NCBI GenBank assembly: GCA_004353515.1
Contig: SMNZ01000004.1
Location: 248,001 to 312,000 of the forward strand
Length of the DNA stretch: 64,000 bases
Source of the DNA: Alteromonadaceae bacterium M269
Lineage (GTDB): Bacteria; Pseudomonadota; Gammaproteobacteria; Enterobacterales; Alteromonadaceae
Direction: 5' to 3'
Every line of letters begins with the position of its first letter. Positions within the stretch are counted from its first letter, which is position 1. Shown here one piece after another: positions 39,315 through 50,207 of this stretch. The translations under genes and the position numbers were made by a program. The notes beneath the pieces were generated by a model. That model was given only the letters and a program-made list of their open reading frames with translations, did not search any database and was not told the DNA's origin.

Positions 39315-39686
39315 ATGACCGACAAAACACTCTATGAACGTTTAGGTGGTTACGATGCCATCACCACATTTGTAAACGACTTGATGCCGCGCTTGGAATC
39401 AGATCCTCAGCTCGGACGATTTTGGCAGCACAGAGGCTCCGACGGTGTGCAAAGGGAAAAGCAACTACTGATAGATTACTTATGCAATAAAGCAGGGGGA
39501 CCGGTTTACTATACGGGACGAGACATGCGGACATCACACGTAGGCATGAACATCAGCGAAAGCGACTGGGCAGCCTTTCTCGGTCACGCAGGAGATACTA
39601 TGACTGCTCTCAATATCCCTCAGCAGGAATGCGACGATGTCGTTACTTTTGTCTTGAGCCTAAAAGACGACATAGTCGGGATCTAG
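39315..39686 (+). CDS. truncated haemoglobin (group I type)
   Basis: A 123-residue 2-on-2 globin. Landmarks are LYERLGGYDAITTFV at the start, GGPVYYTGRDM, and the proximal His75 in RTSHVGMNIS. The length and motifs fit group I (TrHbN-like). Group I globins bind O2 and can dioxygenate NO to nitrate, but some serve other roles. The gene is convergent with hnoB, nine bases between stops, at the edge of the NO-signalling cluster. Confidence 0.88.
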   Translation: MTDKTLYERLGGYDAITTFVNDLMPRLESDPQLGRFWQHRGSDGVQREKQLLIDYLCNKAGGPVYYTGRDMRTSHVGMNISESDWAAFLGHAGDTMTALNIPQQECDDVVTFVLSLKDDIVGI

Positions 39687-39694
39687 CTCTACCG

Positions 39695-41425
39695 CTATTC
39701 CGCAAAAGGCTGTTCAAAACACAGCTGATTAAAGGTATCGAAATCAACAGCTGGGCTAAACAAGAACCCTTGAATACTATCACAGGGCATCTGTTCCAAA
39801 ATAGCCAGCTGTTTACTGTCCTCAACACCCTCTACAACTGTTTTTATTCCTAAGGAATAAGTCATCTGGAGGATATGGCCAACCAGTGCTCGATTTGCTG
39901 ATGAGTGACTAATATCGTCTATCAGTATCTTATCGAGTTTAACAACATCTATTGGCAATTTAGCGATATAAGCGAGCGATGAATACCCAGAACCAAAGTC
40001 ATCAATAGATAGCAAAAAGCCTAGTTTTTTGAGCGCGAGTATCGTTTGCTGACAAGTTTCGATGTTATCAACCACACTGGTTTCGGTAATTTCTAGTTCT
40101 ATACATTCTGCCGATAAATCGTGTTCTTCCAACAACATTCGCAATTCATCAACCAAACTACCGGACGTTAACTGCCCGGCGGATATATTGATAGAGATTC
40201 TGTCCAACACAGGGTGCATCTCAAAAAGCCGTTTTATTGCAGCAAAACTGGCTCGAGACATCCATTGCCAAATAGCATCAATTTGTTTATCCAACTCGCT
40301 TAACTTTATAAACTCTTCAGGCGGTATCCATCCTAATTCCTGATGATTCCATCGAAGCAGTATTTCGGCACTTTCTATCTTACGATTCCGCAATGATATT
40401 TTCGGCTGAAAATAGAGCTCAAATCCATTCTGTTCAATAGCGGGTTGAATACTGTCACAAATCGTTTTCTGTCGTTGCAACGCTTCAAGATGCTCACTTC
40501 CTACTTGCAGGGCACTATCATGCGGATAACTCGTATCGTTTTGAACACTTAGAAGGCTTTGGATGATGGTTTCTGGCGTATGCTTCTCGGGTTCCGTAAC
40601 TTCCAGGTACGCAAGCTTGCAATAGATATTGAACGTCTCATCTACTGTATGAAACGGCATATCTAGCCTTGCATATAAACTTGAGATAGCAGATTCCAAT
40701 TTCCTTTTTAAACCACGCTTTTTACCTACAAGATAAAAACCACCATCTCCGGCATACAAGCATTTACATTCTTCACAAAACCCTTCGTGTCCATAAGCCG
40801 TCAACTGGCACTGCAATAGCTCAGCCAAATGAATATCGCACTTGGACTTCAAATAAGAAAAGTTATCGATCTGTATCTGAATAACGTAGAAGTCCTGCTG
40901 GCTTTTCAATAACGCATTTAGCTCCGCTGTAACAACATGCTTTAGTGACGCCGCCAATATCGCGTTAGGTTCTAACAAGGTTTGAGTATAAGCTGTCGCA
41001 GCTTGGGTTGTATCGAAATTGTCATGAAGTCGATCGTACTCAGAAAAAGCCTGCTCGATATGCCTTATCAACTCACCGTTGTCCCAGGGTTTTGATAAGA
41101 AACGAAATGCAGTGCCTGAATTAATAACCTCTTGCGCATTTGAAAAGTCTGCATAACCAGACAAGATCATCGCAATAGTATCAGGATGCTCTTGTTTAAC
41201 TTGTTTCAGCAACTCCCCGCCGTCAACATCTGGCATTTGATAGTCAGATAAAAGAACTTGAACGTCATAACTCGCCATCAGCTCCTTCGCTTGTTTTGCG
41301 CTATTGGCTACAAGCACTTTATAAGGACATTGATTCAGCGCTCTCGACAATGACCGTAAAACTGCTGGCTCATCGTCTACAAGAAGTAATGTATGTTCTT
41401 TTTGATAGGCAGATGCTTGCTCCAT
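39695..41425 (-). CDS. hnoB: HnoB-like response regulator with EAL cyclic di-GMP phosphodiesterase domain
   Basis: A 576-residue receiver-EAL protein. The receiver has Asp61 (LLSDYQMPDVDGG) and KPWDN. The middle 170 residues contain a degenerate GGDEF-like stretch (YAGDGGFYLV) with no cyclase signature. The EAL domain begins with FQPKISL; EILLRW (Glu354) replaces EALLRW, and ETSVVDN, DDFGSGYSSLAY, VKLDK and VEGVED are intact, so hydrolysis is expected. In Shewanella oneidensis HnoB is the EAL regulator phosphorylated by HnoK in NO signalling (from memory of published work). Naming is by architecture plus location beside hnoC, hnoD, hnoX and hnoK. It follows the porin-like gene by 41 bases. 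Confidence 0.85.
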   Translation of the reverse strand: MEQASAYQKEHTLLLVDDEPAVLRSLSRALNQCPYKVLVANSAKQAKELMASYDVQVLLSDYQMPDVDGGELLKQVKQEHPDTIAMILSGYADFSNAQEVINSGTAFRFLSKPWDNGELIRHIEQAFSEYDRLHDNFDTTQAATAYTQTLLEPNAILAASLKHVVTAELNALLKSQQDFYVIQIQIDNFSYLKSKCDIHLAELLQCQLTAYGHEGFCEECKCLYAGDGGFYLVGKKRGLKRKLESAISSLYARLDMPFHTVDETFNIYCKLAYLEVTEPEKHTPETIIQSLLSVQNDTSYPHDSALQVGSEHLEALQRQKTICDSIQPAIEQNGFELYFQPKISLRNRKIESAEILLRWNHQELGWIPPEEFIKLSELDKQIDAIWQWMSRASFAAIKRLFEMHPVLDRISINISAGQLTSGSLVDELRMLLEEHDLSAECIELEITETSVVDNIETCQQTILALKKLGFLLSIDDFGSGYSSLAYIAKLPIDVVKLDKILIDDISHSSANRALVGHILQMTYSLGIKTVVEGVEDSKQLAILEQMPCDSIQGFLFSPAVDFDTFNQLCFEQPFAE

Positions 41426-41466
41426 AATACCCTCTCAAATAAGTTAGCTAGCTCTAAGTGTAGACG

Positions 41467-42504
41467 TTAAAAATCATATCGGGCTTCAATTCGAAAACGA
41501 ATGCCTTCTTCTTGCAAACCAACCAGTCTTTGAAGCTGACTAAAGCGCGTACCCAACCACCATTTCTTGCCCATTTTGCGGCGTAATCTAAGATCAAAAC
41601 CTTGTGTATTCGCTGTATCAACAGGCGATGTCGCATTTTGTGCGAACTCAGTAATAACGGCAAAACGTTCAACGCGTAAGAAGCGAACATGCCATTGATA
41701 ATTGCCAACCTGTTTTAAATTTCCATGTTTAATTTCAGCAACTACACTATTCTTTTGGTCATCAAATCCTTGGTCGGTGAATTGATCGAAGCTCTCTATC
41801 GAACGCCCTAAATCAAGACCAAATTGCCACGCACCTTTTTTAATAAAAGTCGATAAACGAACAAAACGGTTATCAATCGCCGTATCTCGACGAGCAAAGT
41901 CTGCATCCGCCTGTCCATTGTAGTTGACTAGCCAAGGCGCAATAGTCCATTGCCAGTCTTTGATTTTGAGTTTGTGTTGCCATTGAGCAATAGACATTTG
42001 ACCAATAGTGTTGGTAGCTCCATCCAGAGGAGCAAAATGAGCAACAGAGAAAGTATCGTTTTTGTCTAAAGTGTAATCGAGGTGCACACCTTGGGGGTTC
42101 AAGTCACGATCCCAGAATATGTCGCTAACTTGTTTTGTTCCCCACGGAATTTTACCGATATTCAGTTTTAAGTTGTCGAACTTACCTGTGATATAGAACC
42201 TGTCAATGAAGATATCATTGGGCGGTTGTCTTTGCTCCGTGAATCTCGCAATAGTAATCGCAGGAACATTTTGTCTATTTTTAAGACCTGTTCTCAGGCC
42301 GATTCGAGTAGACCAAGTTTCGTTAAATTTAACATCAATGCCAGCACGGGCGATAAGTCTTAATCTCTCTCTATCTCTAAAAAAGTCATGCTCGACTTCA
42401 TTCTCATATCTCAAAATAGCGTTAGCGTAAGGATTTATATCAACAGCCTCAGCTACATAACTCGTTACTATTAACAAAAGCAAAGCGACTTTTTTCATAC
42501 TCAT
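41467..42504 (-). CDS. putative outer-membrane porin-like beta-barrel protein
   Basis: A 345-residue exported protein (signal MKKVALLLLIVTSYVAEA). It has alternating-residue beta-strand patterns throughout (RVRLIARAG-type segments such as WSTRIGLRTGLKN and WHVRFLRVERFAV) and a C-terminal aromatic residue (EARYDF) typical of beta-barrel assembly signals. No family recognised for certain; it resembles generic putative porins. The start at ATG 42504, with GGAG five bases upstream, is preferred to an upstream TTG. It is the first gene of the hnoB arm, so may be controlled with it by the repeat at 42609-42635. Confidence 0.62.
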   Translation of the reverse strand: MSMKKVALLLLIVTSYVAEAVDINPYANAILRYENEVEHDFFRDRERLRLIARAGIDVKFNETWSTRIGLRTGLKNRQNVPAITIARFTEQRQPPNDIFIDRFYITGKFDNLKLNIGKIPWGTKQVSDIFWDRDLNPQGVHLDYTLDKNDTFSVAHFAPLDGATNTIGQMSIAQWQHKLKIKDWQWTIAPWLVNYNGQADADFARRDTAIDNRFVRLSTFIKKGAWQFGLDLGRSIESFDQFTDQGFDDQKNSVVAEIKHGNLKQVGNYQWHVRFLRVERFAVITEFAQNATSPVDTANTQGFDLRLRRKMGKKWWLGTRFSQLQRLVGLQEEGIRFRIEARYDF

Positions 42505-42591
42505 ATTCTCCAATTGCGCTTTGGCGCTCCTTCGAAGTTCAAAAACGCAAACTACTGGTTTAGATGAAACAATTTATGAGAACTTGAAAAC

Positions 42592-42621
42592 ATCATAGCA
42601 TAAAAAACGCAAATGTCGCAA
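42592..42621 (-). promoter_or_regulatory. candidate promoter for the porin-hnoB operon
   Basis: Read on the reverse strand, TTGCGA (42616-42621) and TATGAT (42592-42597) stand 18 bases apart, a fair -35/-10 pair about 88 bases before the porin start. Its -35 overlaps the repeat array at 42609-42635. Confidence 0.4.
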
Positions 42622-42635
42622 ATGTCGCATTTGAC
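42609..42635. promoter_or_regulatory. repeat/palindrome in divergent promoter, candidate HnoC operator
   Basis: Two direct copies GCAAATGTC (42609-42617, 42618-42626) are followed by GCATTTGAC (42627-42635). The second copy and the last unit form the perfect palindrome CAAATGTCGCATTTG (42619-42633). The array sits between the porin-hnoB and hnoC transcription units and overlaps candidate -35 boxes on both strands. HnoC of Shewanella is a repressor in its own network (established there); here that role is inferred. Confidence 0.6.
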
Positions 42636-42658
42636 TTTTTTGTCACACATGTTATAAA
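42631..42658 (+). promoter_or_regulatory. candidate promoter for the hnoC operon
   Basis: TTGACT (42631-42636) and TATAAA (42653-42658) are 16 bases apart and close to consensus. A start point near 42665 would leave a leader of about 17 bases with GAGG (42671-42674) before the ATG at 42682. The -35 box lies within the right end of the repeat array. Confidence 0.5.
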
Positions 42659-42681
42659 TATCCTTAATAGCGAGGTAAGCC

Positions 42682-43245
42682 ATGATACGAAACCACTCAT
42701 TAACAACCGGAGAGATAGCGAAGTACTGCGATGTTAATTTACGTACCGTTATCCGTTGGATTAATAAAGGTAGTCTAAAGGCCTATAAATTGCCCGGCCG
42801 TGGTAATAATAGAGTCCAAACCGAAGACTTTTTAGCATTTCTCTCAGAAAACAACATGCCCGTTCCTGAGGATCTACTACCTACTAAGCGCGAAGTGCTT
42901 ATCGTCGATGACGAGCCTGCTTATTCGAAATCCATAAAACGCGTGTTGTCCAAAGCTGGCTATGAATGCACTATCGCGAATGATGGCTTTCAGGCAGGCC
43001 TGATGCTGCACTCAAACCACCCGACACTAATGACTCTCGATTTAAGCATGCCTGGTCTAGATGGTTTTGAGGTTATTACTTTTACACGAGGGCAAGAGTC
43101 AGTCGCTAAAACCAAGATTCTAGTGATCTCTGCTTTGAATGAGAGAGAATTACAGCGGGCTCTCGAATTAGGTGCTGACTCTGCGATAAGCAAACCTTTC
43201 AGCAATGAAGAATTACTTAAGGTTATCAATGAGTTAATCGACTAG
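42682..43245 (+). CDS. hnoC: HnoC-like DNA-binding response regulator (helix-turn-helix N-terminal, receiver C-terminal)
   Basis: A 187-residue regulator with reversed order. A MerR/excisionase-like helix-turn-helix occupies residues 5-55 (LTTGEIAKYCDVNLRTVIRW, wing with KLPGRGNNRVQTEDF). A receiver domain covers 70-185, with the DD pair in IVDDEPAY, Asp120 (LDLSMPGLDG) and Lys in ISKPFSN. Classical response regulators put the receiver first. HnoC of Shewanella oneidensis is a helix-turn-helix response regulator and repressor of NO-signalling genes whose phosphorylation by HnoK relieves repression (established knowledge). It heads the rightward operon and lies next to a palindromic operator candidate. 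Confidence 0.8.
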   Translation: MIRNHSLTTGEIAKYCDVNLRTVIRWINKGSLKAYKLPGRGNNRVQTEDFLAFLSENNMPVPEDLLPTKREVLIVDDEPAYSKSIKRVLSKAGYECTIANDGFQAGLMLHSNHPTLMTLDLSMPGLDGFEVITFTRGQESVAKTKILVISALNERELQRALELGADSAISKPFSNEELLKVINELID

Positions 43246-43306
43246 TGCCACCTATAGGCAAGGAAATTGTCAGCCTAAAGGCAATATTTACTAAGGGGTA
43301 AATATC

Positions 43307-44137
43307 ATGAAAATCAGGATATTCAGTTTTTTTTCAATTGTGCTACCTGCGCTGTTCATATTCTCTCACAACAGCCAGGCAGACACCCTGACGTTCGGTA
43401 TTGTTCCCCAACAGTCGGCGAAAAAGCTCGCTGCTAACTGGTCACCGCTTTTTCAATATTTAAGCGAAAAGACTGGCGACAAAATTCAATTTGCGACTGC
43501 GAAAAACATCCCAACCTTTGAAAAGCGCTTAGCGCAAAAAGAATACGATATTGCTTACATGAACCCTTATCATTTCGCTGTGTTTAACCAACCCGACGGT
43601 TACCAAGCGTTAGCTAAACAGAGCGACAAAGCGATAAGAGGTATCATCGTTGTGCACAAAGATTCGGGTATCACCTCAATTGAGCAATTACATGAACAGA
43701 AGCTCGCTTTTCCAGCTCCAGCTGCCTTTGCTGCAACCATTATCCCAAGAGCCGAAATGCAAAAGAAAGGAATCAATGTGTTACCTAAATTCGTGTCATC
43801 ACATGATTCAGTTTACCTCAACGTTTCAAAGAAGTTCTTCGTAGCTGGTGGTGGCGTGATACGAACCCTTTCTAATACGCCAATAGAAGTAAGTGACCAA
43901 CTAAAAGTTATTTGGAAAAGCCAACCTTATACGCCACATGCGATAGCAGCCAGACACGATCTCAACCCAGAGACTCTGGAGCGCCTAAAGAAAGCGATGC
44001 TAGCAATGAATGACGATCCCGAAGCTAAAGCGTTGCTAGATAAGATCAAATTTAATGGTTTTACTCACGCCAGTAATAGCGACTGGGACGATGTCCGTGC
44101 ACTCGACATCAATATGTTGTCAGTGCCAGAGAGTTAA
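43307..44137 (+). CDS. PhnD-like phosphate/phosphonate-type periplasmic binding protein
   Basis: A 276-residue exported protein (signal peptide ending NSQA). PhnD-group landmarks are LTFGIVPQQSAKKLAANWSP, EYDIAYMNPYHFAVFN (ligand pocket) and HKDSGITSIEQLH. The family binds phosphonate, phosphite, phosphate or related oxyanions for ABC transport. No permease or ATPase is present; the gene is followed 14 bases later by a membrane histidine kinase, as in pairs where a binding protein presents ligand to a sensor. AAGGGG precedes the ATG. Confidence 0.87.
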   Translation: MKIRIFSFFSIVLPALFIFSHNSQADTLTFGIVPQQSAKKLAANWSPLFQYLSEKTGDKIQFATAKNIPTFEKRLAQKEYDIAYMNPYHFAVFNQPDGYQALAKQSDKAIRGIIVVHKDSGITSIEQLHEQKLAFPAPAAFAATIIPRAEMQKKGINVLPKFVSSHDSVYLNVSKKFFVAGGGVIRTLSNTPIEVSDQLKVIWKSQPYTPHAIAARHDLNPETLERLKKAMLAMNDDPEAKALLDKIKFNGFTHASNSDWDDVRALDINMLSVPES

Positions 44138-44151
44138 TAGGCGATAAACTC

Positions 44152-45825
44152 ATGTCTTTACGCAGCAAAACCATTATTGGTATCGCGATAATCGAAGCAT
44201 TACTGCTGATTTTATTAATCAGCGTAACGCTAAGTTTTATGCGCTCTACCATTAATGATGGCCTGACAAAAAGGGCGAGCACGGCTGCACAACTTTTCGC
44301 AACAACGACAAAAGATGCTGTTTTATCTTACGACCTAGCCTCTTTGGATGCGTTCGTGACGGAGGTTCTTACGAACCCCGACATGCAGTACGCGCGAGTA
44401 TTGGATGCTGAAGGTAATGTCTTCTCCGAAAAGGGAACTCAAGAATCCCTTACAAAAGCCTTCAGACTCGATAAACAAGTAGAGGACGTCGACGACAATG
44501 TCTTTGACACCTATGCTCTTATCAAAGAAGGAGACTTTATCTATGGTCGAGTTGAAATAGGGATAGGTGTTTCAGGTATCCAGAACTCATTTCAGCAAGT
44601 CATCCGGTGGACATCTGGCTTGGCTATTACCGAAATGTTGTTAGTTGCACTATTCTCATTTGTATTAGGTACCTACCTCACTCGGCAAATTAAAAGCTTG
44701 GTTATAGGCGCTAAGAACATCCGAAAGGCGGTAAGCGATGGTAATTATGATGATATTCATATTGAAGAAAAAGGACACGACGAGTTAACTGAAGTTGCGC
44801 ATTCATTTAACCGCTTAGTTGACAAATTGCAGCTAGAGCATAATAAGCGAGAAGAATATCAACGTGATTTAGAAAACTTAAATCAATCGTTGGAGCAACG
44901 TGTGGAAAGGCGCACCAAAATGCTTGCGGATAAAAATGAACAATTGCAACAAACCAATCAAGAGTTGCAAGCAGCACAGGCTCAATTACTGCAAGCAGAG
45001 AAAATGTCTTCTCTGGGTCAATTGGCAGCGGGAGTGGCTCATGAAATTAATAACCCTATTGGTTTTGTTAACAGTAACTTATCTTCGCTGAGTGATTACG
45101 TGTCTACCTACGAACAGTTGGTCACGCAACTGCAAGATTACCTGGGTTGCAAAGACGCTTTTGAGCGCAGGGATAAAGCGTACGCATTGCAAGATTTTTT
45201 GAAAGACGAGGATATGGAGTTCATCAATAACGACATAAGTGAGTTGGTTCATGAATCTATCGAAGGCTTAACGCGCGTTAAAGATATCGTACAAAGCTTA
45301 AAGCAGTTCGCACGTGCAGACTCCAATGAAATGCAATACATCAATATTAATGCTTGCGTCGAGACCACCTTAAAAATGGTTTCTAACGAGCTGAAATATC
45401 ACTGCGAAATTACAACCCAATTTGCTGAACTTCCTGATGCTCCAGTTAATGTCGGCAAACTGACTCAAGTACTGACTAATTTACTTGTTAACGCGGGACA
45501 TGCTATAGAAGGACATGGGGAAATAAAAGTATCAACGCAGTTACGTGATAACCATATTGCCATCGCAGTGCAAGACAATGGCAAGGGAATCGAAAAAGAT
45601 CATCTTAATCAATTATTTGACCCATTCTTCACCACCAAAGAAGAAGGTGTGGGTACCGGGCTAGGCTTGGCAATATCTTACGGAATAGTGCAAGAGCATG
45701 GCGGAGAGATAGAAGTCGATAGCGTAATCAACGAGGGAACAACCTTTACTGTTGTTTTGCCTCTTGAACAGAAAGAGCAAGGGTCAACAGACCTGAATGA
45801 GGAGACTCAGCATGTCAGTAGATGA
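44152..45825 (+). CDS. membrane histidine kinase paired with the PhnD-like protein
   Basis: A 557-residue kinase. Membrane helix 1 (about 7-27) and helix 2 (about 155-178) bracket a periplasmic domain of about 125 residues (Cache-like by size). A HAMP domain and a coiled coil follow (NQSLEQRVERRTK). The dimerisation domain has His297 (GQLAAGVAHEINNPIGFVNS) and the ATPase domain QDNGKGI and GVGTGLGLA. The catalytic core closely resembles HnoK in the same operon (GQLAAGVAHEINNPVGFSLS). It probably reads ligand-bound PhnD-like protein in the periplasm. Its end overlaps hnoD, so the two are translationally linked. Confidence 0.9.
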   Translation: MSLRSKTIIGIAIIEALLLILLISVTLSFMRSTINDGLTKRASTAAQLFATTTKDAVLSYDLASLDAFVTEVLTNPDMQYARVLDAEGNVFSEKGTQESLTKAFRLDKQVEDVDDNVFDTYALIKEGDFIYGRVEIGIGVSGIQNSFQQVIRWTSGLAITEMLLVALFSFVLGTYLTRQIKSLVIGAKNIRKAVSDGNYDDIHIEEKGHDELTEVAHSFNRLVDKLQLEHNKREEYQRDLENLNQSLEQRVERRTKMLADKNEQLQQTNQELQAAQAQLLQAEKMSSLGQLAAGVAHEINNPIGFVNSNLSSLSDYVSTYEQLVTQLQDYLGCKDAFERRDKAYALQDFLKDEDMEFINNDISELVHESIEGLTRVKDIVQSLKQFARADSNEMQYININACVETTLKMVSNELKYHCEITTQFAELPDAPVNVGKLTQVLTNLLVNAGHAIEGHGEIKVSTQLRDNHIAIAVQDNGKGIEKDHLNQLFDPFFTTKEEGVGTGLGLAISYGIVQEHGGEIEVDSVINEGTTFTVVLPLEQKEQGSTDLNEETQHVSR

Positions 45826-47143
45826 AAACGCAGAAAAAAAAGTACCTCAGGTAACTGTGTTGTGTGTGGATGATGAAAAGAATATTTTAAATTCTATGAA
45901 GCGCCTGCTACGCAAACAACCCTGCAAACTCCTAACAGCAGAAAGTGGTGCCGATGCGCTAGAGCTAATGAAGAGCAATAAGGTACATCTGATTATTTCA
46001 GACATGAGAATGCCTAATATGACAGGTGCAGAATTGCTAGAGCAGGTAGCTGAAAACTCGCCAGACACCTATCGCATTCTCTTGACAGGGTTCGCTGATA
46101 TGGAGTCGACAGTTGCCGCAGTCAACAAGGGTAAAATACACCGCTATATGCAAAAGCCCTGGGATAACGATGAGCTTATCGCGGCTATTGAAGAAGGTAT
46201 CGAAGCCGTCAGCTTAAAAGCAGAAAACAAACGATTACAACAGCGTGTAGCTGAGCAAAATAAACAGCTAAAGCAATCTAACCTCGCGCTTGAAGACAAA
46301 GTACTTTTAAGAACCAAGCAAATCCGTGCAGCCATGCATCGCATTGAAAACAATAACAATGCGACACAGCGTATGCTGTTTAACTTTATCGCCATAAATC
46401 CCAAGTTAGACGCAGGTTTCGCTAAAAATACCGGGCAACTTGCGGGTCGAATTGCCGAGCACTTAAAGCTTGAAAAGCAACAGATTAGTGATATCACTTT
46501 GGCCGGCTATCTGTGCGAAATAGGCATGCTAGGACTCGATCCTACCTTAGCTGAATTGCCTTTTTACAAACTGAATTACGATCAACAAAAACTCTTTTTC
46601 AGTCAGATACAAATGGCTCAATCCATCTTATCTCCAGCTCAGCATATGCATGCCATCACCGAAATTATTATGCATCAGTATGAACATGCTAACGGTTCCG
46701 GCTACCCCAATAAGCTAACAGAAGTGCAGATTCCAATGGGAGCCAAAATACTGGCTGTCGCACGTGATTACTGGCGTTACGCAACAGGCAAACTCAGTGA
46801 CGAAACCATGGATGTCGAACATATCCGCGTAGAAATGAACAAAAACCGAGGCACAAAATATGCGGGTAACGTCCTTGATGTTCTAATGAATAACCCGGAA
46901 CTTACCGCGAACACAGATCTAGAAAAAGGGTATTCTCCTGATCAGCTTAAACCCGGCATGATCCTGAAAAATAATCTACATACTGAAAATCATATGCTAA
47001 TACTACCTGAGGGGCATATTTTTTCCGAAGCCTCTATTGAGAAACTTAAAGCATTTGAGAAAAACAAACAGCAGTCACTTTCTGTTGTCGTTGTGAAAAA
47101 GGCGAAAGCGACTGAAAAGCCAGTATCAACTAAAGAGGAATAA
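45812..47143 (+). CDS. hnoD: HnoD-like response regulator with degenerate HD-GYP domain
   Basis: A 443-residue protein: receiver (Asp64, IISDMRMPNMTG, KPWDN), coiled coil, then an HD-GYP-like domain that has lost its metal site. The HD pair reads YLCEIGMLGLD and the GYP box is MHQYEHANGSGYP, with the first His shifted and no intact HHExxD. Hydrolysis is unlikely. In Shewanella oneidensis HnoD is a degenerate HD-GYP that inhibits HnoB until phosphorylated (from memory). I start at ATG 45812, with GAGGAGA before it, not at an upstream in-frame codon. Confidence 0.82.
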   Translation: MSVDENAEKKVPQVTVLCVDDEKNILNSMKRLLRKQPCKLLTAESGADALELMKSNKVHLIISDMRMPNMTGAELLEQVAENSPDTYRILLTGFADMESTVAAVNKGKIHRYMQKPWDNDELIAAIEEGIEAVSLKAENKRLQQRVAEQNKQLKQSNLALEDKVLLRTKQIRAAMHRIENNNNATQRMLFNFIAINPKLDAGFAKNTGQLAGRIAEHLKLEKQQISDITLAGYLCEIGMLGLDPTLAELPFYKLNYDQQKLFFSQIQMAQSILSPAQHMHAITEIIMHQYEHANGSGYPNKLTEVQIPMGAKILAVARDYWRYATGKLSDETMDVEHIRVEMNKNRGTKYAGNVLDVLMNNPELTANTDLEKGYSPDQLKPGMILKNNLHTENHMLILPEGHIFSEASIEKLKAFEKNKQQSLSVVVVKKAKATEKPVSTKEE

Positions 47144-47146
47144 CCT

Positions 47147-47692
47147 ATGCAAGGCTCTATTTTTACTGCATTTTCTGAACTTGTTATCGAACAACAAGGC
47201 ATGGCTGCCTGGGATGAGATGCTTGATAAGGTACAACCTGCATCCGATGGTATCTACACACGAGGACAGCAATACGACGATAACGAGCTGTTCGATTTAG
47301 TGGGTGCGTTAGCTGAAAAAACTGGCTTACCAGCTCCTGATCTGGTTAGAGCGTTTGGTCAGTTTCTATTCGACAAGCTGTATAACAACATGCCTCCCAA
47401 TGTAGGGAAAATTGAAGACTTTAGAGAATTCCTACTCGCTATCGACTCCGTCATTCACGTCGAGGTTCAGCGTATCCACCCTGATGCGTATCTCCCCAAA
47501 TTTGAGTATGACGATACGGAAGATGGTGATCTCATCATGTATTACGAATCCAAGCGCAAGCTATGCCACGCTGCAGAAGGCTTAATATTAGGAGCAGCTG
47601 CTCAGTTCAAGCAAGAGGTGAATATATTACACCCAGAATGCATGCATGATGGCGCCAAAAGATGTAAATTGATTATCCAAATTAAGGATTAG
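47147..47692 (+). CDS. hnoX: H-NOX haem nitric-oxide sensor (HnoX)
   Basis: A 181-residue haem NO-binding protein. The proximal haem ligand is His104 (AIDSVIHVEVQ), followed by HPDAYLPKF. The haem-propionate motif Y-x-S-x-R is Tyr133-Ser135-Arg137 (MYYESKRKLC). The N-terminal MQGSIFTAFSELVIEQQG is typical of the family. There are four cysteine residues, three of them near the C-terminus (LHPECM and KRCKL among them); such sites in some H-NOX proteins bind zinc. I see no distal Tyr marking O2-binding members, so NO is the likely ligand. The gene follows hnoD by three bases and precedes hnoK by three. Confidence 0.95.
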   Translation: MQGSIFTAFSELVIEQQGMAAWDEMLDKVQPASDGIYTRGQQYDDNELFDLVGALAEKTGLPAPDLVRAFGQFLFDKLYNNMPPNVGKIEDFREFLLAIDSVIHVEVQRIHPDAYLPKFEYDDTEDGDLIMYYESKRKLCHAAEGLILGAAAQFKQEVNILHPECMHDGAKRCKLIIQIKD

Positions 47693-47695
47693 CCT

Positions 47696-48628
47696 ATGGA
47701 TGAATCGGTAAACTACAAACGAGCTTACGAGCGCGAGAAAAAAGCTCGCGCTATGGCTGAACAGTTGCTGGATGACAAGTCTCGCGAGCTCTACGCCAAT
47801 GTCGTAGAGTTGCGGACAACCGTCGAAACGCTAAAGAAAACGCAGGCACAACTTGTTCAGTCAGAAAAGATGGCTTCTTTGGGCCAGCTTGCTGCCGGTG
47901 TCGCGCACGAGATCAACAACCCTGTAGGATTTTCACTGAGTAACATCACAACGCTAAAAGAGTACTTTGAGTCAATCATCGAAATTGATGATGCAATGAC
48001 ACAAGATGGCAAATCAGATAATGAACTGATGACAGACTACAGGGCGCAAAGAGAAGAACATGATATGGATTTCATTCGGGACGATACCCCTGAGTTGCTC
48101 GAAGACACTATCAATGGATTAGGTCGCGTTAAAGATATAGTCGCTAACTTGAGAAAACTCTCACATCAAGGGTCAGACGAATTTGAGCCTTGCAACATTA
48201 ACGAGTGCATTGAAGATTGTATAAAAGCAACAGATAACGAGCTTAAATACAAAATGACAGTCGAGCTTGAACTGGGTGATTGCCCAGAGATTCAAGGACA
48301 AGCAAGCGAGATTAACCAGATCTTTATCAATCTATTCGTTAACGCGAATCACGCTTGTGAACCCAGTGGCACACTCAAAGTAAAAAGCTACGCTACAGCC
48401 TCTGATGTGGTCGTTGAAGTTTCTGACGACGGTATGGGTATTCCACAAGATCGCATCAATAAGATATTCGATCCGTTTCATACATCAAAACCTGTTGGTG
48501 TAGGTACAGGCTTAGGCTTATCTATTTCTCACGGTATCATGGAAAAGCACAGCGGCAGTATCTCGGTTCAAAGCGAGGTGGGAGTGGGTACAACCTTTAC
48601 TTTACGTTTCCCAAAAACCAAAACCTAA
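47696..48628 (+). CDS. hnoK: H-NOX-associated histidine kinase (HnoK)
   Basis: A 310-residue soluble kinase without sensor domain or membrane segment. An N-terminal coiled coil (about 5-55) leads to the dimerisation domain with His71 (GVAHEINNPVGF). The ATPase domain follows with the N box (FINLFVNANHACE), SDDGMGIP and GVGTGLGLS. Kinases of this kind are inhibited by NO-bound H-NOX and phosphorylate HnoB, HnoC and HnoD in Shewanella. Here all those partners lie in the same cluster. AAGGATTAG precedes the ATG. Confidence 0.93.
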   Translation: MDESVNYKRAYEREKKARAMAEQLLDDKSRELYANVVELRTTVETLKKTQAQLVQSEKMASLGQLAAGVAHEINNPVGFSLSNITTLKEYFESIIEIDDAMTQDGKSDNELMTDYRAQREEHDMDFIRDDTPELLEDTINGLGRVKDIVANLRKLSHQGSDEFEPCNINECIEDCIKATDNELKYKMTVELELGDCPEIQGQASEINQIFINLFVNANHACEPSGTLKVKSYATASDVVVEVSDDGMGIPQDRINKIFDPFHTSKPVGVGTGLGLSISHGIMEKHSGSISVQSEVGVGTTFTLRFPKTKT

Positions 48629-48692
48629 CTTTGCGTAACCTCATTTAGCAAACTACTTTTATAGCCTATCAAAAATAAAAAAAGGAACAGGT

Positions 48693-50207
48693 ATGTCAAA
48701 GATATTAATCTTCAATTTTGATGGCACAGATAACGAACCTCAGGATGCAGATCAGTCAATCAAGAAAGGGAAAATTGAGGACGATAGCATCACCAATATC
48801 CTTAAGTTTCATATACTTTGCGGTGGTGACCTTAAAGAACAAAATACACCGTTAACAACCGGAACCCGAATACTGTATTACCATGGCGTTGGCACTTACG
48901 GCCATTTCTTCCAACGCAAATTCAATGCTGCTCTGTCTCCCAATAGAGGAGATGTAAAACATATTATCAATAACGCCCTCAAAGATTTCCAAAAATACTA
49001 TTTAGACGAAGGTGGGTTTGAAAAAATACTGATTACGGGCTTTAGTCGTGGTGGTGCCATTGCGAGGCGTTTTGCTTCATTAATCAATGATAGAGTTGCG
49101 GATAACGCCATCATCGAGGGCATCTTTGATACTGTCGCCTCAATTGGAGCGCCTAATCTCAGCAAGAGAGACAGACCATCATCAGATGTTGTGTTTGAAA
49201 ATGGTCATACTTTGCCATCAAATGTCGAAAAAGCCCTGCATATGGTCTCGCTTGACGATAAGAGACGAACTTTCCAACCAACGCTGATGAATCAGGAAGA
49301 CCGAGTACTCGAAGTCTGGTTTGCTGGTGCGCACTCTGATGTCGGAGGTGGTTATCACTACGATGGATTATCAGACAATGTGCTGCAATTCTTCTTGAGC
49401 TGGATAGAAGACTTAACCTTAGATATCGAACTACTCAATCCAAGAAAAATTGACTATGCCAGCTTAGTCGATGAGGGAGAGCAGGTCGTTATCACGCAAG
49501 AAGATATGATAATCGAAGGCTCACACTTAGGTTACAATCACCAACAAGACCGCGCTTTCCTAATTAAGCAACTGACCCTGACAGACAGAGCTTGCGTAGT
49601 CATCAAGCAAGACCGCGTAACTAACGAGCTCCCACTTGTACACTGGTCAGTAGCGGACAAAGTGTTTGAAGACAATGATTACAAGCCGCAATCGCTAAAG
49701 ACATCTCACAAGATACTTTATGCGGATGACAGCACGAAAGCTTTCTCCGGCTACAGTGAGCATAAATATCCGTTATCGCGAAACTTAGAAGCGCTACCTG
49801 AGACAGGAAAACAGACCAAAGTACACGCCTACATCAAATACAACCGCTCAGGGGTTGTGGTTGAAAAAGGAAAAACTTATAGCATCAAACGCATTGGCAA
49901 CCACACATGGCATGACGGCGGCATACGAGATTTAGATGGTAACGGCTGGAATTTGGACAATCAGCAACTTGGTTTAAAAGAGCCTCTGATTCGTGTTATG
50001 CAACCGTTAAGACGCGTTCCTGACGCCGATTGGTACGGCCTATGTGCCACGGTAGGTCAGAATGATGTGCACGCTAGGTTTATTGGTAACGAAGGAGAGT
50101 TTAAAGCACCGAAAGCTGGAGAGTTATGTTTATTTGCTAACGACCTGGATGGCCGATATGGTAATAACCGAGGAAAATTAATGGTCGAGATTAAATTAAA
50201 GCCGTAG
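48693..50207 (+). CDS. DUF2235 (Tle1-like) alpha/beta hydrolase
   Basis: A 504-residue protein whose N-terminal 320 residues are a DUF2235 hydrolase. NFDGTDNEPQDAD comes at the start, GFSRGGAIARR holds Ser118, IFDTVASIGAPN holds Asp146, and WFAGAHSDVGGGY holds His214. The C-terminal 180 residues are unknown, with one Ig-like stretch (VEKGKTYSIKRIGNHTWHDGG). Tle1-type phospholipases of type VI secretion belong here, but no vgrG, hcp, PAAR or immunity-like gene is near and there is no signal peptide. AAAAAGGAAC precedes the ATG. It starts 64 bases after hnoK and could be co-transcribed. Confidence 0.82.
   Translation: MSKILIFNFDGTDNEPQDADQSIKKGKIEDDSITNILKFHILCGGDLKEQNTPLTTGTRILYYHGVGTYGHFFQRKFNAALSPNRGDVKHIINNALKDFQKYYLDEGGFEKILITGFSRGGAIARRFASLINDRVADNAIIEGIFDTVASIGAPNLSKRDRPSSDVVFENGHTLPSNVEKALHMVSLDDKRRTFQPTLMNQEDRVLEVWFAGAHSDVGGGYHYDGLSDNVLQFFLSWIEDLTLDIELLNPRKIDYASLVDEGEQVVITQEDMIIEGSHLGYNHQQDRAFLIKQLTLTDRACVVIKQDRVTNELPLVHWSVADKVFEDNDYKPQSLKTSHKILYADDSTKAFSGYSEHKYPLSRNLEALPETGKQTKVHAYIKYNRSGVVVEKGKTYSIKRIGNHTWHDGGIRDLDGNGWNLDNQQLGLKEPLIRVMQPLRRVPDADWYGLCATVGQNDVHARFIGNEGEFKAPKAGELCLFANDLDGRYGNNRGKLMVEIKLKP

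What the first reader, a model, noticed from the sequence alone, without database searches (positions are those of the whole stretch)
39315..48628. Contiguous H-NOX/HnoK/HnoB/HnoC/HnoD nitric-oxide signalling cluster
Seen in the sequence: H-NOX (His104, YxSxR), an orphan soluble kinase directly after it, an EAL response regulator, a helix-turn-helix response regulator and a degenerate HD-GYP response regulator, all within about 9 kb. Established for Shewanella oneidensis: HnoK, controlled by NO through H-NOX, phosphorylates HnoB, HnoC and HnoD to tune cyclic di-GMP. As I recall, there the sensor/kinase pair and the regulators are at separate loci. Inference: here the whole network is one two-armed locus, which would make it self-contained.
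Basis: partly seen in the sequence, partly recalled or inferred. Interest (0 to 1): 0.8.

Follow-up and report, generated by a model that had tools for sequence, protein, structure and literature searches.

The report
Nitric-oxide signalling cluster with second sensor

Summary
H-NOX, a soluble kinase (HnoK-like), RR-EAL (HnoB-like), HTH-RR (HnoC-like) and an RR with degenerate HD-GYP (HnoD-like) lie within 8.9 kb. In S. oneidensis the two loci are about 416 kb apart, as recalled. The contiguity is not special: 5 of 80 named H-NOX loci hold the whole set within the fetched flanks. (1) A periplasmic PhnD-like binding protein plus a membrane kinase (HK2) sit inside the same operon, in the slot that NosP and its kinase hold in S. 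oneidensis. (2) This pair recurs beside hno genes (10 of 80). (3) hnoC/hnoD loci carry different sensor arms in different genomes. (4) A 9-bp-period repeat in the divergent promoter is a predicted HnoC operator: found upstream of hnoC in 20 of 27 loci in leave-one-out tests, and upstream of S. oneidensis hnoX. Best reading: an autoregulated two-input version of the known network, one input NO, one an unidentified periplasmic ligand. New variant of a known kind; biochemistry untested.

The parts
39695..41425 (-). hnoB-like: receiver + degenerate-GGDEF-like middle (read by eye, no Pfam hit) + EAL with the expected catalytic motifs
   Evidence: Pfam RR 8.7e-23, EAL 1e-65; EILLR354, NIS413, EITE445, DDFG475, KLD496, EGVE532, QGF552; receiver reciprocal best with So HnoB; tree
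41467..42513 (-). Porin_5-like outer-membrane protein, same strand as hnoB (41-bp gap)
   Evidence: PF16930 1.2e-9; same position in Agaribacter marinus L214, 41% identical
42608..42652 (.). predicted HnoC operator: five 9-bp units in the divergent promoter between the porin-like gene and hnoC
   Evidence: the 7 window matches with score 14 or more all overlap it
42682..43245 (+). hnoC-like: HTH_17 + receiver transcription regulator
   Evidence: 49% to So HnoC; HnoC group SH-aLRT 98
43307..44137 (+). PhnD-like periplasmic binding protein with a hydrophobic N terminus, candidate sensor for HK2
   Evidence: PF12974 1.6e-62; TIGR03431 PhnD below cut-off, 117.4 vs 261.1; pocket comparison; hydropathy
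44152..45825 (+). HK2: HAMP histidine kinase with two hydrophobic stretches
   Evidence: stretches about 8-32 and 155-173; 41.7% to window HnoK over 254 residues
45797..47143 (+). hnoD-like: receiver + HD-GYP lacking the HD pair
   Evidence: 40% to So HnoD; NCBIfam NF053512 'NosR family' 465.4 bits vs cut-off 400
47147..47692 (+). H-NOX NO sensor (hnoX)
47696..48628 (+). hnoK-like soluble histidine kinase, no hydrophobic stretch

Best explanation
The locus is a one-piece, two-input, autoregulated version of the S. oneidensis hno network. Shown by sequence: two divergent gene groups (porin-hnoB; hnoC-phnD-HK2-hnoD-hnoX-hnoK, gaps 61, 14, -29, 3 and 3 bp) share one predicted HnoC operator. Inferred from S. 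oneidensis: without NO, HnoK is active and phosphorylates HnoB (c-di-GMP hydrolysis on), HnoD (inhibition of HnoB relieved) and HnoC (repression of both groups relieved); NO-bound H-NOX inhibits HnoK, so c-di-GMP rises. Inferred here: a periplasmic ligand bound by the PhnD-like protein controls HK2, which feeds the same three regulators, taking the place that NosP and its kinase (NahK, earlier HnoS, as I recall) take in S. oneidensis.
For: Orthology by identity, reciprocal receiver hits and tree. Expected EAL motifs, degenerate HD. His104 and C140, C165, C173 invariant in A1. Agaribacter marinus has hnoB-porin-hnoC-phnD-HK2-hnoD in the same order and strands, with H-NOX/HnoK about 0.88 Mb away on the same contig. 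PhnD-like and full-length HK2-like genes occur in the same 10 of 80 named H-NOX loci. PhnD-like genes have a kinase beside them in 32 of 38 other loci. Operator: 20 of 27 hnoC upstream regions in leave-one-out vs 4.1% of 270 shuffles; the best match in the 20-kb S. oneidensis hnoX locus lies just upstream of hnoX. Published network: PMC6335343, PMC8846402, PMC8738867, passages only.
Against: No biochemistry. The HnoB EAL half is not the best match of So HnoB's EAL half. Of 38 other PhnD-like loci only 3 carry hnoC and hnoD; 28 sit beside large kinases (699-1219 aa; the 3 such loci put in the tree carry a receiver) with no hno regulator in range, so the pair is not dedicated to hno. 7 of 27 hnoC upstream regions lack the operator. 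Agaribacter has HnoC, yet its separate hnoX upstream scores only 5.1. Phosphotransfer from HK2 to the three regulators rests on operon membership and kinase similarity only. In Caulobacter NO-bound H-NOX does not inhibit HnoK (PMC12329717).
Confidence: 0.7

Rival explanations
1. Two insulated two-component systems that merely adjoin: PhnD-HK2 with HnoC (and perhaps HnoB) as one, H-NOX-HnoK with HnoD as the other.
For: Agaribacter keeps hnoC-phnD-HK2-hnoD apart from H-NOX/HnoK; Alteromonas sp. 5E99-2 (L092) and three Colwellia loci (L104, L106, L107) have hnoD-hnoX-hnoK without hnoC or hnoB in range; window HnoD is 78% identical to the 5E99-2 one but only 39% to Agaribacter's, so hnoD may have come with hnoX-hnoK.
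Against: In S. oneidensis two kinases share all three regulators (PMC6335343); the two window kinases are closer to each other (41.7% over 254 residues) than the two S. oneidensis ones (31.9% over 276).
Confidence: 0.2
2. The PhnD-like protein is an ordinary phosphonate/phosphite transport component and HK2 an unrelated kinase, both bystanders.
For: Pfam and NCBIfam place it in the PhnD superfamily.
Against: No ABC permease or ATPase among the ten proteins scanned at 39315-50204; below the PhnD equivalog cut-off; S-T-S of PtxB aligned with A140-F141-A142; kinase beside it in 32 of 38 other loci.
Confidence: 0.06
3. H-NOX here answers to redox (zinc-cysteine oxidation) more than to NO, as reported for Caulobacter.
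For: Three cysteines that match the 3-Cys zinc motif (positions recalled) are conserved; oxidative activation is reported for Caulobacter and V. cholerae H-NOX (PMC12329717, passages; PMC7108781, start of abstract).
Against: The protein is nearest to S. oneidensis H-NOX, an NO sensor; the two modes are not exclusive.
Confidence: 0.15

Closest known systems
S. oneidensis H-NOX/HnoK - HnoB/HnoC/HnoD network (with NosP and its kinase)
   Same: H-NOX, soluble kinase, RR-EAL, HTH-RR and degenerate RR-HD-GYP, grouping together in the receiver tree; operator-like site upstream of So hnoC and So hnoX
   Different: One locus instead of two; second arm is a PhnD-like protein + HAMP kinase instead of NosP + kinase; the NosP-like gene of this genome lies elsewhere beside a GGDEF-EAL gene
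Agaribacter marinus hnoB-porin-hnoC-phnD-HK2-hnoD locus
   Same: Same six genes, order and strands
   Different: H-NOX/HnoK at another place on that contig (L093)
Neptunomonas qingdaonensis and Amphritea atlantica hno clusters
   Same: hnoX, hnoK, hnoB, hnoC, hnoD, phnD and HK2 all within the 10-kb flanks (L153, L160)
   Different: Gene order and strands differ
Burkholderia NosP-NosK-NosR
   Same: NosR is a degenerate HD-GYP response regulator fed by an NO-controlled kinase (PMC12570481, passages); window HnoD passes the NCBIfam 'NosR family' cut-off
   Different: Sensor is a FIST protein, not H-NOX; the described operon is nosRPK only
AioX/ArxX/ArrX sensing proteins with their kinases
   Same: Periplasmic PhnD-superfamily protein as first component of a signalling system (PMC5908839, passages); ArrX among the best profile hits
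   Different: The two serines flanking the shared Phe in ArrX (S-F-S) read Ala here (A-F-A); output here would be c-di-GMP/HnoC

Membership tests
hno network (S. oneidensis type) | H-NOX with proximal His and YxSxR | tested here: met
hno network (S. oneidensis type) | Soluble orphan kinase adjacent to hnoX | tested here: met
   3-bp gap, no hydrophobic stretch, 36% to So HnoK
hno network (S. oneidensis type) | HnoB: receiver + active-looking EAL | tested here: met
   receiver tree. The EAL half alone does not single out So HnoB
hno network (S. oneidensis type) | HnoC: HTH_17 + receiver | tested here: met
   same two Pfam domains as So HnoC; 49% identity; tree
hno network (S. oneidensis type) | HnoD: receiver + HD-GYP without HD | tested here: met
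   C240-E241 in place of HD; So has S-E
hno network (S. oneidensis type) | HnoC site in the hno promoter | tested here: met
   predicted site only; not compared with the published footprint (paper not held)
hno network (S. oneidensis type) | Second arm NosP + kinase at the hnoBCD locus | tested here: not met
   the one FIST match of the genome is on another contig; PhnD/HK2 takes the place
hno network (S. oneidensis type) | HnoK phosphorylates HnoB, HnoC, HnoD and is inhibited by NO-H-NOX | not testable with these tools
   needs purified proteins
PhnD phosphonate-transport binding protein | TIGR03431 equivalog cut-off | tested here: not met
   117.4 bits vs 261.1; the broader TIGR01098 subfamily is just missed, 106.4 vs 112.05
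PhnD phosphonate-transport binding protein | Oxyanion-contact serines (S-T-S) | tested here: not met
   A140-F141-A142 at the PtxB S-T-S positions; contacts as described in PMC5908839
AioX/ArrX subfamily | Pocket Ser161, Ser163, His192 (AioX numbering) | tested here: not met
   in the printed ArrX alignment S-F-S faces A-F-A; a His (H166) is conserved nearby. No AioX alignment was printed, so AioX numbering is carried over by inference

The most novel reading that the evidence does not exclude
hnoB/C/D is a shared c-di-GMP output hub onto which evolution plugs interchangeable sensor-kinase arms (H-NOX-HnoK, NosP-kinase, PhnD-HK2). The window operon carries two of them, so the cell sums cytoplasmic NO with an unidentified periplasmic small molecule that is unlikely to be a phosphonate, under feedback control by HnoC. 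This would be an undescribed extracellular input to the NO/c-di-GMP network.
Probability: 0.45. Interest if true: 0.6.

Novelty: new variant of a known kind. Interest (0 to 1): 0.45.

Why it matters
The signal of the second kinase of the S. oneidensis network was called an open question in a 2019 review (PMC6335343, passage); as I recall, it was later assigned there to NosP. Here, and in Vibrio, Neptunomonas, Amphritea and Granulosicoccaceae loci, hno genes sit with a periplasmic binding protein and its kinase instead, which makes a ligand hunt direct: purify one soluble protein and screen small molecules. The one-operon layout also lets the whole network be moved and rebuilt in a laboratory strain, and the predicted operator gives a reporter.

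Tried and rejected
Contiguity as the novelty: rejected after the 80-locus survey. NosP as the hidden second arm of this locus: rejected, the one FIST gene found lies elsewhere. Truncated globin (39315-39686) as a conserved member: no match with half coverage or more in the printed tables of 40 unnamed and 80 named H-NOX loci, and no operator match of 10 or more near it. The AlphaFold model of the PhnD-like protein from 10 sequences was poor (mean pLDDT 55.7), so no fold search was run. Plate and Marletta 2013 (PNAS and TIBS) are not held, so I could not check whether contiguous hno clusters or the exact HnoC site were already printed; searches for HnoS+HnoK (1 paper), H-NOX+PhnD (0) and three of NosP/NahK/HnoB/S. 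oneidensis (4) cover only openly licensed PMC papers. Receiver tree: quick method, 123 columns, SH-aLRT only, receivers of 41 chosen loci (the other receivers of the window genome were mostly not in it); labels come from my similarity thresholds; the HnoB label needed 7 changes and HnoD 3, so neither is one clade overall. Two of 29 hnoC upstream rows (L131, L120) were dropped as duplicates before the leave-one-out count; the matrix first used was trained on those 29 rows. Of the four hnoX upstream regions that exceed 12, L160 and L170 are the same DNA as hnoC upstream rows used in training, and L168 and L240 are both Shewanella, so only one independent case is left. The HnoC count is a lower bound: only 8 candidates per genome were scored, and G892 (L280) has an HnoC-like gene that it did not list.
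Full report
OBSERVATION. The window holds all five proteins named, within 39695-48628. H-NOX matches PF07700 at 6e-39, is single copy in its 5.6-Mb genome, and its best solved relatives are S. oneidensis H-NOX entries. In a 7-row alignment His104, Y133, S135, R137 and the cysteines C140, C165 and C173 are invariant; that these are the zinc ligands is recalled, a 3-Cys zinc motif being described in PMC12329717 (passages). The EAL protein keeps the expected motif residues, and the HD-GYP protein has Cys-Glu where HD should stand. Three more genes in the interval were not mentioned: a Porin_5-like protein, a PhnD-like periplasmic protein and a HAMP kinase with two hydrophobic stretches, HK2. The stated start, 39315, belongs to a truncated globin that converges on hnoB.

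SOURCE. The nearest named H-NOX is that of Alteromonas sp. 5E99-2 (85% identity; family Alteromonadaceae).

COMPARISON WITH S. ONEIDENSIS. hnoX-hnoK lie at about 2.252 Mb and hnoB(-) hnoC(-) / hnoD(+) nosP(+) kinase(+) at about 2.669-2.676 Mb, roughly 416 kb away. Identities to the window: HnoC 49%, HnoD 40%, H-NOX 38%, HnoK 36%, HnoB 37% in the receiver and 32% in the EAL. The HnoB receivers are each other's best receiver match between the two genomes, while the EAL halves are not singled out. In a tree of 115 receivers from 41 chosen loci (quick method) window HnoC lies in a 20-row all-HnoC group (98), window HnoD in a 14-row all-HnoD group with So HnoD (93, under the tool's 95 star) and window HnoB in a 9-row all-HnoB group with So HnoB (96). 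HnoB and HnoD as labels are not single clades on that tree (7 and 3 changes).

HOW COMMON IS THE ONE-PIECE LOCUS? Among the 80 best named H-NOX loci (of 199 confirmed), counting within the fetched flanks (up to 10 kb, shorter at contig ends) and by my similarity thresholds, 72 of 80 have an HnoK-like kinase, 45 an HnoD-like, 17 an HnoB-like, 10 an HnoC-like, 10 a PhnD-like and 10 a full-length HK2-like gene, the last two in the same 10 loci; 0 of 80 have NosP. All of hnoX, hnoK, hnoB, hnoC and hnoD occur together in 5 of 80 (L114, L120, L133, L153, L160), and with phnD and HK2 in 2 (Neptunomonas qingdaonensis, Amphritea atlantica). The unnamed G013 (L062) also has the five. So the contiguity is real but shared.

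THE SECOND ARM. Agaribacter marinus has hnoB-porin-hnoC-phnD-HK2-hnoD in the window's order and strands, with H-NOX/HnoK about 0.88 Mb away on the same contig. HnoC was found in 12 of 394 sampled genomes of the order (a lower bound). In the 11 loci other than those of the window genome, hnoD is nearby in 10 (the eleventh, L255, is a 4.8-kb contig). The input differs: PhnD+HK2 in 2, H-NOX in 2, NosP in 1, a kinase without any of these in 5, undetermined in 1. The PhnD-like family was found in 39 of 394; of the 38 other than the window, 32 have a kinase beside it, 3 have hnoC and hnoD, and 0 have H-NOX in range. The pair is thus a widespread sensor-kinase module that in some lineages is wired to hno genes. 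In S. oneidensis the corresponding slot holds NosP and its kinase. As I recall from an abstract not held here, that kinase was first called HnoS and then NahK; PMC6335343 (passage) describes HnoS as feeding the same three regulators without responding to NO. In the window genome the one FIST/NosP-type gene found lies on another contig beside a GGDEF-EAL gene.

LIGAND OF THE SECOND ARM. The family profile finds PhnD, PtxB, ArrX and AioX structures. ArrX and AioX are sensing, not transport, members (PMC5908839, passages). At the S-T-S positions of PtxB (S-F-S in ArrX) the window family reads A140-F141-A142, each at least 90% conserved in 17 sequences; the paper names serines there as oxyanion contacts in AioX and PhnD. 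A phosphonate- or phosphate-like ligand is therefore unlikely. The ligand is unknown; a structure model failed (pLDDT 55.7).

REGULATION. Regions upstream of hnoC share TGTC-N5-TGTC. In leave-one-out tests 20 of 27 score above 9, against 4.1% of 270 shuffles. In the window it forms five 9-bp units at 42608-42652; the 7 matches scoring 14 or more in 64 kb all overlap it, with 1, 0 and 0 such matches in three shuffles. The exact core TGTCNCANNTGTC occurs once, 0.12 expected. The array contains the palindrome CAAATG-TCG-CATTTG, in keeping with the statement that HnoC recognises palindromic motifs over promoter elements and targets hnoD (PMC9938897, passage). The matrix, trained only on hnoC upstream regions, has its best hit in the 20-kb S. 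oneidensis hnoX locus (12.4 bits, next 8.7) just upstream of hnoX. Of 85 hnoX upstream regions four exceed 12: two are shared with hnoC upstream DNA used in training, two are Shewanella, one of them S. oneidensis. Against it, the separate hnoX of Agaribacter, which has HnoC, scores only 5.1. Unphosphorylated HnoC is reported to bind and repress, and phosphorylation to release it (PMC12471899, passage).

MECHANISM, shown and inferred. Shown: gene content, orthology, gene spacing, motif. Inferred: HnoK and HK2 both phosphorylate HnoB, HnoC and HnoD; NO acts through H-NOX on HnoK; a periplasmic ligand acts on HK2; HnoC closes a feedback loop on both gene groups. Both kinases carry HEINN, a motif that PMC12570481 (passages) takes as a sign of kinase/phosphatase bifunction, so either arm may also drain phosphate. 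HnoD passes the NCBIfam cut-off for the 'NosR family'; in Burkholderia, NosR is a degenerate HD-GYP regulator phosphorylated by a NosP-controlled kinase. V. cholerae VC1087, an RR-HD-GYP without the HD pair, was inactive as a phosphodiesterase (PMC4212101, passages); that VC1087 is V. cholerae HnoD is my recollection.

VERDICT. A real, well-formed hno network in one locus, a new variant because of the joined PhnD-HK2 arm. Interest 0.45: the contiguity is shared with others, but the interchangeable arms and the missing ligand are testable.

Noticed in passing
window 39315-39686 (+): Truncated globin (PF01152), possibly an NO- or O2-handling protein, converging on hnoB with an 8-bp gap; not seen in the compared H-NOX loci.
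   Followed up: partly
window 48693-50207 (+): Tle1-like (PF09994) phospholipase-effector-type protein 64 bp downstream of hnoK; not seen in the compared loci.
   Followed up: no
L215 5715-10537 (same genome, contig C27): A second HnoC-type regulator (53% identical) beside a PAS-containing kinase and two proteins without Pfam match that read by eye as porin-like and secreted: perhaps a paralogous sensor unit.
   Followed up: partly
L249 7088-10156 (same genome, contig C11): NosP-like FIST protein beside a protein that reads as GGDEF-EAL, so the genome may have a second NO-type sensor outside this locus.
   Followed up: partly
L168, Shewanella xiamenensis: hnoX promoter keeps the HnoC-operator-like site (14.7 bits) although no full-length HnoC, HnoD or PhnD-like match was found in that genome at the thresholds used: perhaps a relic, or genome incompleteness.
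   Followed up: no
L268-L298: The PhnD-like protein is most often beside a large kinase (699-1219 aa) in other genomes of the order (28 of 38 loci); what these systems sense and control is open.
   Followed up: no
L212 8807-10412, Vibrio metoecus: The kinase beside the PhnD-like gene is split over two reading frames.
   Followed up: no
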